From assembly GCA_019104905.1 (NCBI GenBank), contig JAHRXB010000138.1, positions 1-19,827 on the forward strand: 19,827 nt of DNA, given 5' to 3'. The notes below the pieces were generated by a model, which made no database searches, had not been told where the DNA came from, and saw nothing but the letters and a program-made list of their open reading frames with translations. A program made the position numbers and the translations under genes. Shown one piece after another: positions 1 through 6,413 of the stretch (within the stretch, counting starts at the first letter, position 1; each line of letters starts with the position of its first letter). Source of the DNA: Bdellovibrio sp. (GTDB taxonomy: Bacteria; Bdellovibrionota; Bdellovibrionia; Bdellovibrionales; Bdellovibrionaceae).

Positions 1-2
1 GA

Positions 3-152
3 ATTTGGAGGGAGGGAAGGACTTTGATGGCCGAAGTGAGGCCTTCGCGGGGCCTGGATGGCCCCCTGCCGGAGCGACAGCGGAGGTAGGAGCGATGAGG
101 CAGGATGCCGTGCCGAACGCAGCGCCAGCAAAGTCCTTCCCTCCCTCCAAAT
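3..152. repeat. Long inverted-repeat element 1 (24-bp perfect arms, 102-nt spacer)
   Basis: Bases 3-26 and 129-152 are perfect reverse complements (24 bp), separated by 102 nt. The arms are purine-rich on the left and pyrimidine-rich on the right. The spacer holds a further hairpin (GGGGCC at 49-54 with GGCCCC at 60-65), a CTGCC/GGCAG pairing (66-70 with 99-103) and two direct copies of GGAGCGA (71-77, 89-95). The right arm ends in ATCCTCG (151-157), as in the element at 5170-5340, and the left side begins GAAT (1-4), also shared. It lies beyond the 3' end of the minus-strand gene at 230-718. No open frame in it looks like a gene. The repeat geometry is seen directly; mobile, regulatory or RNA roles are unproven. 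Confidence 0.85.
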
Positions 153-229
153 CCTCGTGCCATCACCAGACTAGGAGATCAGTTTCAAAGCGGCCTAACC
201 TTCCAAGGTCGGCCCTTTGTACTAAAATC

Positions 230-718
230 TTATTGTCGATACGCTTTCTCCAAGGTCGAGATATCGAGCTTCTTCATCGGTAACAAAGCCTCCATGACCT
301 TGTTCGATCTCTCTGGATCCGAGTCGCTGATCATTTCCTCTAAGGCCTCCGGGACAATTTGCCACGAAAGACCATACCGGTCTTTGAGCCACCCACACTG
401 TTGGGCATTTTTGTCTCCCCCTTCCGAAAGTTTTGCCCAATAATAGTCTAATTCCTCTTGCGTCTTGCAGTTCACCACTAAAGAAACTGCTTCGTTGAAT
501 CTAAAAACGGGGCCTCCATTCAACGCCATAAACTGCTGACCATTCAGCTCAAAAACCACCGTCAACACACTTCCTGAGGGCCTATGATGGATTTCAAATC
601 CGGCTTCCCCATAATGGGTGACTTTTAAAATCTTCGAGTTCTTAAAGATGGAGGTATAGAATTTAGCGGCCTCTTCAGCTTCTGAATCAAACCACAAACA
701 TGTAGAAATAGATTGCAT
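230..718 (-). CDS. VOC superfamily protein, PhnB / 3-demethylubiquinone-9 3-methyltransferase-like fold
   Basis: A 162-residue cytoplasmic protein of the glyoxalase/VOC superfamily, in the PhnB-like group often annotated 3-dmu-9_3-mt. The start MQSISTCLWFDSEAEEAAKFY matches the usual opening of this family: a beta strand, then a helix with AxFYxSIF. It continues with GSVLTVVFELNGQQFMALNGGP and ends the core with CGWLKDRYGLSWQIVP, the family's hallmark WL-D-YG-SWQIVP stretch. Length is normal. The ATG at 718 has a strong AAGGAG six to seven bases upstream. A candidate promoter lies in the 81-bp gap to the ABC permease gene, so it is probably a separate unit. Family membership is clear; substrate is unknown, and the methyltransferase name in databases is not evidence of that activity. 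Confidence 0.85.
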   Translation of the reverse strand: MQSISTCLWFDSEAEEAAKFYTSIFKNSKILKVTHYGEAGFEIHHRPSGSVLTVVFELNGQQFMALNGGPVFRFNEAVSLVVNCKTQEELDYYWAKLSEGGDKNAQQCGWLKDRYGLSWQIVPEALEEMISDSDPERSNKVMEALLPMKKLDISTLEKAYRQ

Positions 719-744
719 CGCTGGCTCCTTGAAAAGATCCCCAC

Positions 745-774
745 ATCCTAGCGGATGACTTAAGCTCGTCTCAA
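745..774 (-). promoter_or_regulatory. Candidate sigma70 promoter for the VOC gene
   Basis: On the minus strand TTGAGA (769-774) is followed after 18 bp by TAGGAT (745-750), 26 bp before the start codon. The match is 5/6 and 4/6 to consensus. Pattern match only. Confidence 0.4.
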
Positions 775-799
775 GGAGTGCTTTGACATGAACGTGCGC

Positions 800-2068
800 C
801 TAGAGTTTGACACTCAACCCGTCTTTAAGAGCTAAACTTTGTGCTCTCAAGGCCGGAATCAAACCAATCACTGTGCCGCCAATCAATGTAATGAATAGAT
901 AAATCAGCTCACGCGACGTAAACCAGGGACCCACCAAATAAAGGCCAAACTCAGATTCGATCCAAGGTTTTAAAACGGCCACAAGTCCCCAGGATAAAAA
1001 GACCCCTAAGGCAATTCCCAGAACCGTCAACAGCGCCGACTCAAACACTAAAAGGCCCACAATTTGATGGGACTTCGCTCCCACGGCCCGCAAAATCGCC
1101 ATCTCACGACGGCGCTCATTCAACGCTGTGGTAAGGGCGATTAACATTGCCATAAATCCAACCAGCACGACCATCCAGGAAATAATACGTAAGACACCTT
1201 CCACAAAAGACAGTCCCTGCCACAGTTCACTCAGCGTGACTCCGGGAATGATCGCTAACAACGGTTCGTCTTTGTAGGTGTTGATCTCTCGCTGCAATTT
1301 CAAGGTCTCAATGCGTGACTTCGCACCAACAAAAAAAGCAGTGATGGTATGAACCTTCAATTTTTCTTTTGTGAGTTGTTCACGGGGAATGATTTTTTCG
1401 GCCGTGGGTGCGGCCCCTTCTTGCCAATCTACATGCAAGGCTTCCATCCCCTCCAACGACATGTACACCGCACGATCCAAAGGAGTTCCTGTCGGCTCCA
1501 AAATCCCCGCGACGACAAACGGTTTGTCATCGTGCTCTTGAATACCTTCCCCTTTGGTCACACCATGAGCGACCACCACACGGGACCTGAGTTTGTATCC
1601 CAATTTACGGGCGACATCGGCGCCAAGAACAACATCCCACAAATCGCGAAATTCTCCTCCTTGGGAAAACTTCACTTTGTGGTCTCCACGATAGTGATAA
1701 TGCTTAAAGAAATCCTGGTTGGTCCCGACAACTCGGAAGCCGCGATGACCGTCCCCCAACGAATAAGGAATGGTCCATTCGATCGCCGGGATTTTTTTGA
1801 TCTCCTCATAGGTCTCATAAGAAATATTATGAGTGGCACTTCCCATGTTAAAAACCGTGTATAAAATCAACTGCAAGGGACCACTGCGAGCTCCCACGAT
1901 AAGATCTGTCTTACTGATGGTTTGCGTGAACCCTTCTTCGGCCGCGCGCTTTGCTCTTTCAACAGAGAGCAATAAAGACACGCTGAGAGCGATAGAAATC
2001 ACCGTCAACGTCGTTGCAAAAATGCGATTCTTCAAGGACTTGATTGCCAATTTTAAGAAGACCATCAC
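800..2068 (-). CDS. ABC transporter permease, MacB/FtsX family
   Basis: A 422-residue inner-membrane permease with the MacB/LolC/FtsX layout: one N-terminal membrane helix (about 17-36), a large periplasmic domain (about 40-285), then three C-terminal helices (about 297-316, 338-364, 388-408). Between helices 2 and 3 is MAILRAVGAKSHQI, the conserved cytoplasmic coupling segment. It should dimerise and work with the ATPase encoded just upstream, whose stop it overlaps. The first codon could be GTG at 2068 (GTGA overlap) or the ATG at 2065 (TGATG); either gives translational coupling. Fourth gene of the minus-strand operon at 800-3697. By analogy with ZrgABC-type loci it may serve metal (zinc) handling, but permeases of this fold often act as mechanotransducers rather than importers, so the transported substrate is open. 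Confidence 0.88.
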   Translation of the reverse strand: MMVFLKLAIKSLKNRIFATTLTVISIALSVSLLLSVERAKRAAEEGFTQTISKTDLIVGARSGPLQLILYTVFNMGSATHNISYETYEEIKKIPAIEWTIPYSLGDGHRGFRVVGTNQDFFKHYHYRGDHKVKFSQGGEFRDLWDVVLGADVARKLGYKLRSRVVVAHGVTKGEGIQEHDDKPFVVAGILEPTGTPLDRAVYMSLEGMEALHVDWQEGAAPTAEKIIPREQLTKEKLKVHTITAFFVGAKSRIETLKLQREINTYKDEPLLAIIPGVTLSELWQGLSFVEGVLRIISWMVVLVGFMAMLIALTTALNERRREMAILRAVGAKSHQIVGLLVFESALLTVLGIALGVFLSWGLVAVLKPWIESEFGLYLVGPWFTSRELIYLFITLIGGTVIGLIPALRAQSLALKDGLSVKL

Positions 2069-2757
2069 CCAACCTTATTAATGGAGTCCAACGAGATGGA
2101 GCGGCTAAAAAGTTTTTCCATGCTGCGATCATGAGATACGAAAACCACGGTTGTTCCGTAAAGATCAGACAACTCAAACATCAGTTTCAAAAACTTCTCG
2201 CGATGATCCGTGTCCAAAGCTGAGGTTGGTTCATCGGCCAACAACAGATCTGGTTTTCCCAAGAGAGCTCTAGCTACGGCGACCCGCTGCTGTTGACCGA
2301 CACTCAATTCAGCGACTTTTTTACCCAGCAACTCTCCAATACCTAGATTTCCGCACAAAGCGCGAATCACCATTTCCGTATCGACACTGCCTAACCGAGC
2401 CCGGCGGGCCGCACTCAAATGCAAAGGCAATTCAATGTTCTCTTGCACCGTCAGATAAGGAATCAAGTTAAAGTTCTGAAAAACATATCCCATATGCTCG
2501 GCGCGAAAAGAGTCCCGCTCCGAATCACTCATCTTAGCAAAGTCACAACCCAATATCTTCAAACTTCCCTGAGACGGCTTCAACACTCCGGAAAGCATTT
2601 CCAGCAAGGTGGTCTTTCCGGTCCCGCTGGGGCCATAAAGAAAGAGCTGCTCGCCACGCACGATGGAAAATTCAGGGATCTTCAAAGTCGGCGTGGCCTG
2701 CCCTGGATAGACATACTGTAAATCACGAATCTCAATTAAGATGTTACTTGAGGCCAA
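2065..2757 (-). CDS. ABC transporter ATP-binding protein, LolD/MacB family
   Basis: A 230-residue ATPase with all expected motifs: Walker A GPSGTGKTT (42-50), Q-loop glutamine at 94 in YVFQNFNLIP, signature LSVGQQQR (151-158), Walker B LLLADE (171-176), D-loop SALD and switch histidine in VFVSHD (H209). It belongs to the LolD/MacB/FtsE branch that powers permeases with large periplasmic domains, and its partner follows directly. The start is TTG at 2757, inside the 3' end of the DUF2796 gene (14-nt overlap), with GGAG six bases upstream; no in-frame ATG would keep the N-terminal strand of the fold. Inferred role: energising the complex formed with the downstream permease, with the two upstream exported proteins as accessory or metal-binding parts. 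Confidence 0.92.
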   Translation of the reverse strand: MASSNILIEIRDLQYVYPGQATPTLKIPEFSIVRGEQLFLYGPSGTGKTTLLEMLSGVLKPSQGSLKILGCDFAKMSDSERDSFRAEHMGYVFQNFNLIPYLTVQENIELPLHLSAARRARLGSVDTEMVIRALCGNLGIGELLGKKVAELSVGQQQRVAVARALLGKPDLLLADEPTSALDTDHREKFLKLMFELSDLYGTTVVFVSHDRSMEKLFSRSISLDSINKVG

Positions 2758-3226
2758 GGCTGTCTCCGTTATTGGTCACTTGGAGGGATTTTTGGACACC
2801 ATCCGCAACGACGTCCACTTGAACTTTCCTTAAACGAGGAAAGATTTTTTGCATATGAAAAGAAATCTCGCTGCCCGCAACAGGAGCCTCACAAGATACA
2901 CCGAACTCGGCTTCAACCTCGGCGTGATTTTTCTGTTGATTCACTTCGAAGATCTCTTTTTTGATCTCACACTTTAAGGAAGGATCCATAACGATCATCT
3001 CTGAAATCTTTTCCTCTAACTTCAGCAGAGCCTGTTCTTTTTTTTGTCTGTCTTTTTTTGATTTAGCTTCGTGTTCAAAGCCATAAAGAGACTCGGCGGG
3101 AACGTGAAACTCGATTTTACCTCTTTTGCCATCAAAGGCCATACTGACTTTGCCTGCGCCATGCATGTGCGCCCCGTGCTCTCGTGCGGCAAAAACCATT
3201 GTCGAAAGTAAAAGGACCTTAAACAT
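2744..3226 (-). CDS. DUF2796 / ZrgA-like periplasmic metal-binding protein
   Basis: A 160-residue exported protein with a short signal peptide (about 1-14), followed by a mature N-terminus with HGAHMHG (H17, H20, H22). This is the signature start of DUF2796 (ZrgA-like) proteins, which bind zinc. Other potential ligands are H41, H52, H101, H124 and two cysteines (C86, C112) that may form a disulfide. Many ZrgA homologues have a long His/Asp-rich loop; here the corresponding stretch (about 51-75) is Lys/Glu-rich and nearly free of histidine. The start ATG has an AGGGGG Shine-Dalgarno, 18 bp after the DUF3299 stop. It overlaps the ATPase start. The context (DUF3299, ATPase, permease) matches Zur-regulated gene clusters in Vibrio and Pseudomonas. 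Family call fairly firm; zinc specificity is inferred. Confidence 0.8.
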   Translation of the reverse strand: MFKVLLLSTMVFAAREHGAHMHGAGKVSMAFDGKRGKIEFHVPAESLYGFEHEAKSKKDRQKKEQALLKLEEKISEMIVMDPSLKCEIKKEIFEVNQQKNHAEVEAEFGVSCEAPVAGSEISFHMQKIFPRLRKVQVDVVADGVQKSLQVTNNGDSLGLK

Positions 3227-3244
3227 AAAACCCCCTTTGAGAGA

Positions 3245-3697
3245 TTATTTGTACGGTTCTATCGCCTCGCCCACGAGTTCGAACGAAGCATCGCCGTACA
3301 TGGATTTCTTTGTCACTAAATTCAACGTCCCATAAACCCAGATCGGACCCACTGCCACATCTGTCCCACGCTTCATCTTCACATAAACCATCTGATTGGG
3401 AGGAGGAGGTGGAACATGAATACAAGCCTGCGGGCTTGGCACCAACAAAAACTCGACGACATCCCGTTGGTTGTCTTCGAGAGGCACCATAAATCCAGGG
3501 ATCTTAACGCTTTTGCCATTCAAAGCTTGCAGCTCTGACGAAGACTTTCCGGTGATATAGTCCATCTCCCCAAGAAGTCGCCAGTCCACCTCGACCCCGT
3601 TCAGCGCTCCGCCCCGCGAGCCCAGCATTTGATAAATCACGGCACCCGTGACCGCCGCTAATATGAATACTCCCGCCAGAACCCATTTTTTCATCAT
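3245..3697 (-). CDS. DUF3299 protein, membrane-anchored, first gene of the ZrgA-like operon
   Basis: About 150 residues. An N-terminal hydrophobic segment (about 4-22, after MMKK) should anchor or export it, followed by a periplasmic DUF3299 domain. Its core holds KIPGFMVPLE (65-74) and the family's hallmark ACIHVPPPPPNQM (91-103), where C92 and H94 could bind metal. The function of DUF3299 is unknown, but the family recurs next to DUF2796 and LolD/MacB-type ABC genes in zinc-responsive clusters. The open frame runs upstream to a TTG at 3751. I chose the ATG at 3697 because the upstream codons would place charged residues before the signal and run into the candidate promoter. A second ATG follows immediately at 3694. 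The Shine-Dalgarno is weak. Confidence 0.8.
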   Translation of the reverse strand: MMKKWVLAGVFILAAVTGAVIYQMLGSRGGALNGVEVDWRLLGEMDYITGKSSSELQALNGKSVKIPGFMVPLEDNQRDVVEFLLVPSPQACIHVPPPPPNQMVYVKMKRGTDVAVGPIWVYGTLNLVTKKSMYGDASFELVGEAIEPYK

Positions 3698-3714
3698 TCG
3701 TCCCAATTCCCAAA

Positions 3715-3733
3715 AGCCCCCCTCATAGGGGCT
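3715..3733 (-). promoter_or_regulatory. Stem-loop at the predicted 5' end of the ZrgA-like operon mRNA
   Basis: AGCCCC (3715-3720) and GGGGCT (3728-3733) form a perfect 6-bp GC-rich stem with a 7-nt loop, followed on the minus strand by TTTT. It begins about where transcription would start from the promoter at 3741-3769 and ends 17 bp before the ATG. It could be a 5' stabilising hairpin or a weak attenuator; no direct evidence. Confidence 0.35.
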
Positions 3734-3740
3734 CCTTCCT

Positions 3741-3769
3741 ATTAAAGACAAGGCTCACCTTAAATGCAA
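3741..3769 (-). promoter_or_regulatory. Candidate promoter for the ZrgA-like operon
   Basis: Minus strand: TTGCAT (3764-3769), 17-bp spacer, TTTAAT (3741-3746). The -10 matches 5/6, the -35 only 3/6, as expected for a regulated promoter. No convincing Zur box was found around it. It is back-to-back with the hisS promoter. Confidence 0.35.
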
Positions 3770-3774
3770 TAGCT

Positions 3775-3803
3775 TTGCGCACTGCCCTTAGCTCTGCTAT
3801 AAA
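3775..3803 (+). promoter_or_regulatory. Candidate promoter for hisS
   Basis: TTGCGC (3775-3780), 17-bp spacer, TATAAA (3798-3803), 32 bp before the hisS start codon. The -10 matches 5/6 and the -35 3/6. Confidence 0.4.
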
Positions 3804-3835
3804 GGAACTTTCCACTGAAGAGTGAGGCCGAAAAT

Positions 3836-5086
3836 ATGAGCAGCAAAATTCAAAGAGTTCGCGGCACCCGTGATCTCCTTCCCGAGGACAGTCTTCTTTT
3901 CCGTTTTGTCGAACAATCAGCCTATGAGAAGGCCCTTTTGTACGGTTACGGAGAAATTGAAACTCCAATTTTTGAATTTTCTGACGTTTTTCATCGCACC
4001 CTCGGCGAAACTTCCGACGTTGTGAATAAAGAGACTTATGATTTTACAGATCGCGGAGGCGAAAGTCTCACATTAAGACCTGAGGGGACAGCAGGCGTCG
4101 CACGCGCTTTTATCTCTGAAGGACTGAGTCAAAACCTTCCGTTAAAATTTTATTACTCCGGCCCGATGTTTCGATATGAGCGACCACAAAAAGGACGATA
4201 TCGTCAATTTTACCAATTGGGCGCAGAGTGTTTAGGTTATGACTCCCCCCTGGCCGACGTCGAGTGCATCGCTTTGGCGTGGGACGTCTTGCAAAAAATC
4301 GGCATTTCCGCCGACTGCACCCTGGAGATCAACACTCTCGGAGACTCAGAAAGTCGCGCCGCTTATCGCGAGGCTTTAGTCAGTTACTTCACGGCTCATC
4401 AAGAACAACTGTCAGCAGACAGCAAAATGCGTTTGGAAAAAAATCCTTTGCGTATCTTGGACTCTAAAGATGAAGGCGACAAAAAAATCAACGCCCTGGC
4501 GCCAAAATTTGAACAGTATCTCAATGAAACTTCGAAAACGTTCTTTAAAAAAGTTTTGGACGGCATCGAGAAATTGGGGATCCCGTATAAGATCAATTCT
4601 CACCTAGTGCGTGGCCTCGATTACTATTCTCACACTGTTTTTGAATTCACGACGGCCAAGCTGGGTGCACAAGGCACCGTGCTTGCTGGCGGACGCTATG
4701 ATGGTTTGATTGAAACCATGGGGGGCCCAAAAACTCCGGGCGTCGGCTGGGCCGCAGGGATCGACCGTTTGGCCGATCTCACTCCTAAAGAGTTAGCGAT
4801 TCAATCCGAAGTCCTTATCGCCGTCATTGGCGCCGATGATCTCGGCGAAGAAGAAAGCATCAAAGTCGCCCACGAAATCCGCAGCCGAGGCCTCAAGGCA
4901 GAAAACTTCCTCTCTGGAAAAATGGGCAAAAAAATGCAAAAAGCCAACAAGCTGAACGCCCACTACGCCCTCATCCTCGGCAGCAATGAAGTGACCAATA
5001 AAACCGTCACAGTAAAGAACTTCGCCACCGGAGAACAAAAAGAAATCTCCCGCACCGAACTTCAAACTTTTGATTTTAAAATCTAA
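3836..5086 (+). CDS. hisS: Histidine--tRNA ligase
   Basis: A 416-residue class II aminoacyl-tRNA synthetase that charges tRNA-His in the cytoplasm. Visible landmarks are the N-terminal [10 protein letters not shown] (9-18), RPEGT (81-85), motif 2 [13 protein letters not shown] (113-125), the histidine-specific [15 protein letters not shown] (257-271) and AGGRYDGL (284-291) leading into motif 3 [12 protein letters not shown] (301-312). A C-terminal anticodon-binding domain covers about 325-416 and includes [12 protein letters not shown]. Length is normal for the family. The ATG at 3836 follows GAGG at suitable spacing. It is monocistronic as far as visible, divergent from the ZrgA-like operon and convergent with lgt. 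Confidence 0.97.
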
Positions 5087-5124
5087 AAAAAGAAAAAGGC
5101 TCTATGAATTTCCCTCATAGAGCC
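5085..5124 (-). terminator. Intrinsic terminator for lgt, just past the hisS stop
   Basis: A perfect 10-bp stem (5098-5107 with 5115-5124, 7-nt loop) is followed on the minus strand by T5-C-T7. This is a strong Rho-independent terminator for transcripts arriving from lgt. On the plus strand the hairpin is preceded by an A-run and lacks a U-tract, so it would stop hisS less efficiently. The lgt 3' UTR therefore includes the inverted-repeat element at 5170-5340. Confidence 0.85.
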
Positions 5125-5169
5125 CCTCAAAAACCAAATAAACCTAAACAAAAAAGACGACCTCGTCGC

Positions 5170-5340
5170 GCGAGAATGGGGAGAGTTCCCCTGGGCGAAA
5201 AACCGAGTTCCGCAGCGCCAAGAAAAATCAGCCCAAGCAATCAAAAGACAAAAAAACAAAACCCACAATGCCAGCAAGCCCCTCCATGCGCGAGGACTGT
5301 CTGAGCGTTTTTCGCCCAGGGGAACTCTCCCCATCCTCGC
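5170..5340. repeat. Long inverted-repeat element 2 (34-bp arms, one mismatch, 103-nt spacer)
   Basis: Bases 5170-5203 and 5307-5340 are reverse complements over 34 bp with a single mismatch (A5175 against C5335); the inner 28 bp are perfect. The spacer is 103 nt, A-rich in the middle, with no gene. The outer ends read GAGAAT on the left and ATCCTCG on the right, as in the element at 3-152. The same mismatched pair sits at the same place in both elements. The arm sequences of the two elements are unrelated. GCGCGAG occurs at the left end (5168-5174) and again inside the spacer (5288-5294). CGCAGCGCCA (5211-5220) also occurs in element 1 (118-127). The element lies 14 bp beyond the lgt stop. 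Confidence 0.9.
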
Positions 5341-5354
5341 CCACCGAGCGCCGC

Positions 5355-6413
5355 CTACTTTCGTCCAAGTTTGATCGAGTGCCCTTTACCCCAACCCGGA
5401 ACATTCAAGGAACTTGCGCGAGTCCAGACAAACATGAGTATCAAACCCACTGCAAACATCACGACACTGAGCCACTGACCTCGAGTCAATCCCAACCATT
5501 GGAAACCAATATGGGCATCAGGCATACGGAAGTGCTCATCAATCACACGCACGATCGCATAAAGAAGAACAAAGGTCGCCGCGACAAATCCTGGCTTGCG
5601 AGGTTTTCTCCATAACAAAAACAAAAAGACAAAAAGAAAAAGCCCCTCACCCACCGCTGCGAAAAGTTGTGATGGATAACGAGGTGTCAAAATAGGTGCG
5701 ATCGCCTCTTTGGCCGCCGCATTCCCTTCTTGAATGGATTCAACGACTTTATTCATGATGGAATAAAGCTGATCACGAGAACCCACGTCAAAACGAAACT
5801 TTTCTACAAGCTCCAACCACTGCTCACGCCCCACGCCGATTTTTTCAACCACGGGAGCAAGATCCGGCAATCGTGTGGCTTCTTGTGAAGGCCACATGAA
5901 AATATCTTGCGGAAATTTCACCGCCAAAGGGAAAGACGGATCGCAAGGACGTCCCACCAGCTCGCCATTGATAAAGTTCGCGATGCGACCAAAAAACACA
6001 CCAATGGGCCCTGTCACGGCGACAAGATCCAAAAGATACAAAGAGTTCACGGAATACTTACGAGCATACAACAAACACGCAAGAACAATCCCGATAATCC
6101 CACCATGGCTGGCCATTCCACCTTCATTGACGGCTAAGACTCCCCAAAAAGGAAATGTGGATTTAAACTTCAAGAACAAATCAGGGCCATAGAAAAGCAC
6201 ATACCCCAAACGTCCACCCACCAAAGTTCCAATCGCGGCGTAGGTAACAAAGTCACCCACCATCTGGGCTGTCAGTCCTGATCTTTGCCTTTGCGCCAAC
6301 CAACGAATAAGCAGATAAGCACAAATGAACCCCATCATGTATGAGAGTCCGTACCAGCGAATACCAAAATCGCCAGAAATTCTTAGTGCAAAGGGATCAA
6401 AATCATGAACCAC
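5355..6413 (-). CDS. lgt: Prolipoprotein diacylglyceryl transferase (Lgt)
   Basis: A 352-residue polytopic inner-membrane enzyme that moves diacylglycerol from phosphatidylglycerol to the lipobox cysteine of prolipoproteins, the first step of lipoprotein maturation. Diagnostic features are the Lgt signature GRIANFINGELVGR (142-155, catalytic-region R143), ASHGGIIG (101-108, H103) and PRYPSQL (244-250), followed by FRMPDAH. At 352 residues it is longer than the usual 260-290. The extra sequence is a hydrophilic, mostly helical insert at about 175-243, between the signature and PRYPSQL. The start is GTG at 6413 with AAGGA six bases upstream. Its transcript probably ends at the terminator at 5085-5124. 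A predicted substrate, the M16-like lipoprotein at 17285-18703, is encoded in this window. Confidence 0.96.
   Translation of the reverse strand: MVHDFDPFALRISGDFGIRWYGLSYMMGFICAYLLIRWLAQRQRSGLTAQMVGDFVTYAAIGTLVGGRLGYVLFYGPDLFLKFKSTFPFWGVLAVNEGGMASHGGIIGIVLACLLYARKYSVNSLYLLDLVAVTGPIGVFFGRIANFINGELVGRPCDPSFPLAVKFPQDIFMWPSQEATRLPDLAPVVEKIGVGREQWLELVEKFRFDVGSRDQLYSIMNKVVESIQEGNAAAKEAIAPILTPRYPSQLFAAVGEGLFLFVFLFLLWRKPRKPGFVAATFVLLYAIVRVIDEHFRMPDAHIGFQWLGLTRGQWLSVVMFAVGLILMFVWTRASSLNVPGWGKGHSIKLGRK

What the first reader, a model, noticed from the sequence alone, without database searches (positions are those of the whole stretch)
3..5340. Two long inverted-repeat elements with conserved ends but unrelated, self-complementary arms
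Elements at 3-152 and 5170-5340 have arms of 24 bp (perfect) and 34 bp (one mismatch) around spacers of 102 and 103 nt. Both begin GAAT and end ATCCTCG, with the same A/C mismatch one base outside the inner perfect stem. The arm sequences themselves are unrelated between the elements. Keeping terminal bases and spacer length while arms differ but stay complementary suggests selection on structure, or a generating mechanism that copies one arm to the other (for example template switching). Both lie past the 3' end of a minus-strand gene. I know of no named family that fits, but I cannot search.
Basis: partly seen in the sequence, partly recalled or inferred. Interest (0 to 1): 0.72.

Follow-up and report, generated by a model that had tools for sequence, protein, structure and literature searches.

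The report
Hairpin repeats with rewritten paired arms
The two inverted repeats belong to two families of scattered DNA hairpins whose central piece is conserved (one of them across distant bacterial phyla) while the two matching arms are unique at each site and can be replaced together between closely related species, which hints at an unusual process that copies one arm from the other.

Summary
The inverted repeats are real, but the reading changes. The two elements belong to different repeat families; the shared end bases are chance (1 of 206 family-B copies, the element itself). Element 2 is family B: a conserved apex, GCTCARACAGTCCTCGC-(variable inner hairpin)-GCTGCGGAACT, between site-specific complementary arms of about 20-90 bp. 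Its words occur in 13 of 14 sampled genomes of the window's genus and patchily in other phyla. Element 1 is family A: another core, same layout. All 7 strongest inverted repeats in 400 kb of one complete genome involve one of these cores. At one orthologous site three close species keep flanks and core ends but have three unrelated, self-complementary arm pairs. Elsewhere an arm contains an inverted copy of the neighbouring gene's last codons. No left arm of 105 tested recurs at an unrelated site beyond chance-level matches. An RNA-strand (G-U) bias is not robust, few copies have a T-run, Rfam has no match. Best reading: a small DNA foldback element whose arms are made and remade by copying one strand back on itself across the apex. 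Where new arm sequence comes from, what spreads the core, and any host function are not shown.

The parts
5162..5203 (.). left arm of element 2 (site-specific; outer part has a counterpart in the core-less hairpin of G003)
5204..5307 (-). family-B core (apex) of element 2; on the minus strand it begins CGCTCAGACAGTCCTCGCGC and ends GGCGCTGCGGAACTCG; these two ends are the conserved words
5307..5348 (.). right arm of element 2, complementary to 5162-5203
3..31 (.). left arm of element 1
32..123 (-). family-A core of element 1 (minus strand GGCGCTGCGTTCGGCACGGCATCCTGCC ... GGGCCATCCAGGCCCC ...)
124..152 (.). right arm of element 1, complementary to 3-31
5355..6413 (-). lgt, whose 3' end lies beside element 2 (also the element site in G002, G006, G023; family A there in G007; hairpin without core in G003)
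3836..5086 (+). hisS, convergent neighbour of element 2

Best explanation
Element 2 (and by analogy element 1) is a short interspersed DNA foldback element: a conserved apex held at the turn of a long hairpin. Shown: the apex is conserved and dispersed; the arms are unique per site; an arm can hold an inverted copy of the adjacent flank; and the two arms differ together between species. Inferred: at a replication fork or at a cut cruciform the new strand, having copied the apex, folds back and copies its own upstream arm for some 20-90 nt before returning. This makes an inverted copy of the flank, repairs mismatches between arms, and, when one arm has been damaged and refilled, rewrites both arms at once. 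The apex escapes overwriting because it is the unpaired turn; its conserved words are probably read in hairpin form by an unknown factor that spreads or maintains the element. No host function is shown; I think it most likely behaves as a mobile or selfish DNA hairpin.
For: (1) Scan of 400 kb of G006 without looking for cores: 7 inverted repeats with score >=20 against 0 in each of 5 shuffles; 5 hold core B in the loop (by script), 2 involve core A (by eye: one has it in the loop, the other is two A cores facing each other). (2) In G059 the 66-nt core has 40 matches (75-100% identical, some partial); of 30 loci fetched, 20 have unrelated near-perfect arms of 41-50 or 77-88 bp, and 7 of the 30 have perfect arms of 45-83 bp. 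(3) Orthologous site near G006:1521371: flanks 0.86-0.95 identical over 100 nt, arms 0.54-0.61, near the level of left arms from different sites (mean 0.50, max 0.70, 66 pairs), yet each species' arms pair (scores 28, 28, 24). (4) Site 1 (G006:1146444): 12 genomes without the element have no long hairpin there (by eye) and only a short stretch between the gene end and the next ribosome-binding site; with it, the right arm is the inverted copy of the left gene's last codons, stop included; left-arm variants (AGAACTTATAGC, AGAAAGTATAGC, AGAAATTATAGC) are matched in the right arm of G006, G020 and G007. (5) Inverted, decayed copies of gene tails also beside ahcY (L021), a gene I read as nrfD-like (L042), lgt (L050) and in an actinobacterial MAG (L103); complementarity beyond the arms exceeds the 99th percentile of swapped pairs in 10 of 61 genus copies (0.6 expected), 5 of 90 named cross-phylum copies (0.9), 4 of 11 in G059 (0.1). 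(6) At the 1886081 site three species have three different stems, each pairing with its own other arm (scores 28, 33, 32). (7) Template switching is known to homogenise inverted-repeat arms (PMC8604942, passages read) and in yeast favours inverted repeats 40-80 bp apart (PMC10766183, passages read), within the range of core lengths here.
Against: At three of the four most changed sites the core also differs (0.76-0.81 identical; 0.88-0.90 at lgt), which fits replacement of the whole element. In G059 the arms end sharply and several share an outer motif (TCTCAAAATGARATC-like or GGTGCCTGACAC...TGCGTTATT, by eye), which suggests a unit with fixed ends. In Eggerthellaceae the arms are short (mostly about 18-31 bp) and none of the 7 inverted repeats with score >=20 in 400 kb of G061 holds a B core. 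Core-less hairpins exist at two orthologous sites (G003 at lgt, G002 at G006:1763022), which would also fit insertion into a hairpin. At 5 of 11 sites the arms are conserved at 0.90 or more, so rewriting is not general.
Confidence: 0.45

Rival explanations
1. Element turnover: whole hairpin elements (core plus arms) are mobile and replace one another at the same spot, by insertion into an existing copy or by recombination with strains that carry another copy; the arms travel with the element and are merely old and diverse.
For: At three of the four most changed sites core and arms change together with sharp borders. Near-identical family-A copies in the window's genome share arms and about 90 nt beyond on one side (L002/L003, 278 nt at 90%). 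Shared outer motifs in some G059 copies.
Against: Of 105 left arms searched in 3.6 Mb, 18 matches lay elsewhere: 1 is apparently one locus split over two contigs (L012/L014), 12 are among four loci that look orthologous (flank scores under the threshold of 80), 5 are chance-level 18-21 bp matches. L397 arms have no other listed home in 24 genomes (capped list). G059 cores are nearly identical while the arms share nothing but an outer motif in some.
Confidence: 0.25
2. A structured RNA (regulatory 3'-end or small RNA): the conserved words form the functional internal loop and the stems are free to vary as long as they pair.
For: Conserved words between two variable stems; inner loops hold stems of >=6 perfect pairs in 107 of 193, against 11% of shuffles. 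A raw excess of A-C over G-T mismatches on the core strand, i.e. G-U on the other strand (81 to 23 in named cross-phylum copies, 43 to 16 in the genus).
Against: The excess comes partly from shared positions beside the core; leaving out the inner 19 nt and counting per element it is 29 (G-T) against 44 (A-C), p=0.10. Copies occur between divergent genes too (13 of 49 genus copies with clear neighbours). Arms include coding sequence. No Rfam match for the elements (one search lists only an SRP RNA elsewhere in L055 and a sub-threshold match in L051).
Confidence: 0.18
3. Insertion of the cores into pre-existing hairpins such as bidirectional terminators.
For: Core-less hairpins at lgt in G003 and at G006:1763022 in G002 match the outer stem of the filled allele.
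Against: In the 400 kb of G006 none of the inverted repeats with score >=20 is free of the cores, and the empty alleles of site 1 have no long hairpin (by eye). Both core-less hairpins could arise by deletion between short local palindromes in the arms (inference). Only 9 of 83 genus copies have a T-run after the arm (background 5% per side) and 1 of 121 elsewhere.
Confidence: 0.07
4. Assembly or amplification artefact (fold-back chimeras, contig ends).
For: Some copies lie at contig ends in MAGs (element 1; L012, L014, L223, L226, L236).
Against: Same structure in single-contig genomes (G006, G023, G002) and orthologous in them.
Confidence: 0.01

Closest known systems
REP / REPIN (GTAG- and CGTC-tagged palindromes; RAYT-associated)
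   Same: Short, intergenic, dispersed, hairpin-forming, found in many phyla, some without a known transposase (abstract of PMC3733652)
   Different: REPs are families of small palindromes with a foot tag (abstract); here the apex is conserved and the stem is unique to each site. A genome with 41 copies (G060) has no Y1 transposase match.
Quasi-palindrome correction / template-switch mutagenesis
   Same: Arms made identical by strand switching across a spacer (PMC8604942, passages read)
   Different: The cases in the passages read are isolated short repeats in yeast genes; here a conserved, dispersed core sits at the turn.
[quoted passage not shown]
   Same: Strand switching at inverted repeats 40-80 bp apart yields inverted copies (PMC10766183, passages read)
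   Different: There large triplications at unrelated repeats; here tens of bases at a dedicated element.
Integron attC sites (recalled)
   Same: Sequence-variable stems with conserved boxes, read as a folded strand
   Different: attC boxes pair near the outer ends and come with an integrase; not tested here.
Mitochondrial double-hairpin elements of Allomyces (recalled)
   Same: Mobile hairpins
   Different: Not compared.

Membership tests
REP/REPIN | conserved stem sequence with GTAG or CGTC foot tag | tested here: not met
   Arms are unique per site, so there is no conserved stem; judged from the arms, no tag search was run
REP/REPIN | cognate RAYT (Y1_Tnp) present | tested here: not met
   16 of 17 genomes have a Y1_Tnp match, but G060, with 41 core copies, has none
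MITE | conserved terminal inverted repeats | tested here: not met
   Arms not conserved between sites; partial outer motif only in some G059 copies
MITE | target-site duplication | not tested
   Empty and filled sites were compared for inverted copies only
Intrinsic terminator | T-run directly after the hairpin | tested here: not met
   9 of 83 genus copies, 1 of 121 elsewhere, 2 of 11 in G059
Known RNA family | Rfam match at the gathering score | tested here: not met
   searches give 0; (E<=0.5) gives only an SRP RNA elsewhere in L055 and a sub-threshold match in L051
Quasi-palindrome / template-switch product | arms change together between close relatives | tested here: met
attC | R/L boxes and a cognate integrase | not tested
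   no search made

The most novel reading that the evidence does not exclude
A cross-phylum class of DNA elements whose only conserved part is the apex of a hairpin and whose two arms are generated, and from time to time replaced as a matched pair, by fold-back copying: in effect a natural paired-sequence generator that leaves inverted copies of neighbouring genes.
Probability: 0.4. Interest if true: 0.87.

Novelty: new variant of a known kind. Interest (0 to 1): 0.76.

Why it matters
If right, it gives a replicated natural record of fold-back (template-switch) synthesis in bacteria, with sister species as before and after, and an apex sequence that can be tested as its trigger. It would explain where some inverted copies of gene ends come from and adds a class of dispersed hairpins in which the loop, not the stem, is the conserved part. 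It also warns that covarying stems need not mean selected RNA structure.

Tried and rejected
First thought that some copies lay in the 23S-5S spacer; ORFs showed the neighbour is ahcY (name). The first pattern for more copies used too short a gap (0 hits). Y1 transposase as the mover: present in 16 of 17 genomes but not in G060. Phage or plasmid carriage: 1 hit in viral contigs for the two-word pattern, none in plasmids for the G059 core. Arms as captured phage DNA: 4 arms tried; two had no match, one a 25-nt 92% match at E 0.2 as the best of 60 phage records, one a single record, E 0.4. RNA-strand bias: raw excess, not robust. Donor of rewritten arms: none found. In one search the row L401/L410 conflicts (left arm 0.93 there, 0.50 here), probably because another word match was chosen; I leave that row out of the counts. 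A third hairpin type at site 2 in G017, G022 and G012 was not followed.

Papers: search listings only; passages found by term in PMC2267715, PMC8604942, PMC10766183; abstract and outline of PMC3733652. That I found no description in print rests only.

That G006 is B. bacteriovorus HD100 is recalled from its size.

Full report
What is in the window. The window is contig C131 of an 88%-complete MAG. One search confirms two long inverted repeats, 3-31/124-152 and 5162-5203/5307-5348. Element 2 folds with z-scores of -9.6 and -8.6 against 200 shuffles. Element 1 has two near-identical further copies in the same genome (99% and 92% identity) and one remote relative. Element 2's centre has three further matches in the same genome, and one search found five exact-word copies there. 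Searched over 59 genomes (own and relatives), the 401 bases around element 2 matched in 17, by the centre, by the flanks or by both.

The centre is the conserved part. Twenty distinct copies aligned around the centre give, on the minus strand of the window, CTC.GACAGTCCTCGCGC ... TTCTGATTGCT ... GGCGCTGCGGAACTCG, with almost no common sequence in the arms, although 18 of the 20 pair well within themselves (score 23.5 or more; L012 is cut by a contig end and L045 is weak). A genome of another family of the order, G038, has a loop of only 39 nt between 39-nt arms.

Distribution. A few (for example Propionigenium and Oscillospiraceae) have weak arms and may be chance. Of 125 places, 124 have usable flanks, and 108 of these have an arm score >=12 against 0.45% of swapped pairs; bases just outside the searched words (GCTCA.A) are also conserved at 82-94%, the dotted one at 60%. 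In 144 genomes of the phylum the pattern occurs in 14, namely 13 of 14 sampled genomes of the window's genus and one other, and the reversed control in none. In the family of Adlercreutzia hattorii it occurs in 16 of 60, up to 41 copies per genome, control none. The 30 loci that fetched all have complementary arms with score >=15.5. One viral contig matched the pattern, and no plasmid record matched the G059 core.

The association is not an effect of looking for it. In 400 kb of G006 (3,782,950 bp, the size I recall for B. bacteriovorus HD100) 13 inverted repeats score >=16; of the 7 with score >=20, 5 hold core B in the loop (by script) and 2 involve core A (by eye; one of these is two A cores facing each other); five shuffles give none. 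The six weaker ones carry no B core by the script. In a second 400 kb from G002, G023 and G006, chosen partly because it faces known elements and run without shuffles, 11 repeats score >=18: 7 B-like (4 by script, 3 by eye), 3 A-like by eye, and 1 the core-less form of a known site. In G025, another genus, 3 of 5 repeats with score >=20 hold a diverged centre of the type CTCRRACA...GAACTCG by eye. Against this, none of the 7 such repeats in 400 kb of G061 (Adlercreutzia hattorii) holds core B; the B copies of that family have short arms.

Arms are unique, and can differ together. In G059 (HKST-UBA12) 40 places match the core. Of 30 loci fetched, 20 have near-perfect arms of 41-50 or 77-88 bp; 4 are cut by contig ends, L225 shows no arms, and 5 have arms of 29-40 or 56 bp. 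They lie in convergent, tandem and divergent intergenes. Several of these arms share outer motifs, which I cannot explain. Of 105 left arms searched in 3.6 Mb of loaded sequence, none recurs at an unrelated site beyond five chance-level 18-21 bp matches; 13 further 'elsewhere' matches are one locus apparently split over two contigs and four loci that look orthologous. At the site of G006:1521371 the species G006, G023 and G002 have nearly identical flanks but three arms hardly more alike than arms of different sites, each self-complementary. Of 11 orthologous sites compared over two or three of these species (a twelfth row is set aside because it conflicts), 4 include a pair of species whose arms are 0.54-0.74 identical (1521371, 548279, lgt, site 2), 2 are intermediate (1886081 at 0.68-0.83; 1763022 at 0.66-0.76) and 5 are conserved at 0.90 or more. 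At 1886081 three species have three different stems, each pairing with its own other arm.

Copies of neighbouring genes. At site 1, 9 genomes have the element, G018 has a masked stretch between the arms, 12 have none, and 2 could not be anchored. The filled right arm contains the inverted end of the left gene, stop codon included; species differences in one arm recur in the other in G006, G020 and G007 (for G000, G001 and G003 the second script did not catch the right arm, and G009 matches less well). Inverted, decayed copies of coding ends are also seen at ahcY (L021), a gene I read as nrfD-like (L042), lgt (L050) and in the actinobacterial MAG L103. Beyond the arms, 10 of 61 genus copies are more complementary than the 99th percentile of swapped pairs, and 5 of 90 named cross-phylum copies.

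RNA or DNA. If an RNA stem were selected, G-U pairs should be spared on one strand. Counted plainly, A-C exceeds G-T on the core strand (43 to 16 in the genus, 81 to 23 in named cross-phylum copies), but part of this is a few shared positions; without the inner 19 nt and counted per element it is 44 to 29, p=0.10. Few copies have a T-run. In the genus 32 of 49 copies with clear neighbours have a gene on the left that runs towards the core's 5' word, and 13 of 49 lie between divergent genes. I read this as little support for an RNA role, not as disproof.

Core-less alleles. G003 at lgt and G002 at G006:1763022 keep a shorter hairpin that matches the outer stem of the filled allele. This can mean insertion into a hairpin or loss of the tip by deletion between short palindromes in the two arms; I favour loss because strong hairpins without a core were not seen in the G006 scan, but the direction is not shown.

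Mechanism. Strand switching within inverted repeats homogenises arms (PMC8604942) and, in yeast, prefers repeats 40-80 bp apart (PMC10766183). A dispersed apex of about that length with an inner hairpin would be a fitting turn. Copying explains the gene-tail copies and the concerted differences; it does not explain the origin of wholly new arms, for which I assume a break and refilling from an unknown source before re-copying. Element turnover is the strongest rival.

Family A. Element 1 has another core with the same layout: the 13 loci printed show paired arms of differing sequence (some imperfect), and at lgt G007 carries A where others carry B. In the window's own genome three A copies share arms and some flank, so A units can also be copied whole.

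Noticed in passing
L227, L231, L233-L235, L242, L245 (G059); similar near lgt in L020, L027, L028: A second dispersed motif, AAAAGGTGCCTGACAC...CTGCGTTATT, forms the outer arms of several G059 elements; a GGTACCTG form occurs beside lgt.
   Followed up: no
L269, L272, L275 site 2 (G017, G022, G012): Another hairpin type (GCGTTGCTGCG...CTTCCTCCTTGCGCC-like centre) occupies the site where G006, G023 and G002 carry core B.
   Followed up: no
L047, L048, L049 (G002, G023, G006): Pairs of family-A cores in opposite orientation about 200-300 bp apart, with coding-like flanks that in L048 and L049 are inverted copies of each other.
   Followed up: partly
G060 and G226 (Eggerthellaceae): Several core copies lie in opposite orientation about 80-155 bp apart, like paired palindromes.
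   Followed up: no
window 1-156; L012, L014: MAG contigs break at these elements; L012 and L014 share arms and look like one ahcY-side element split over two contigs.
   Followed up: partly
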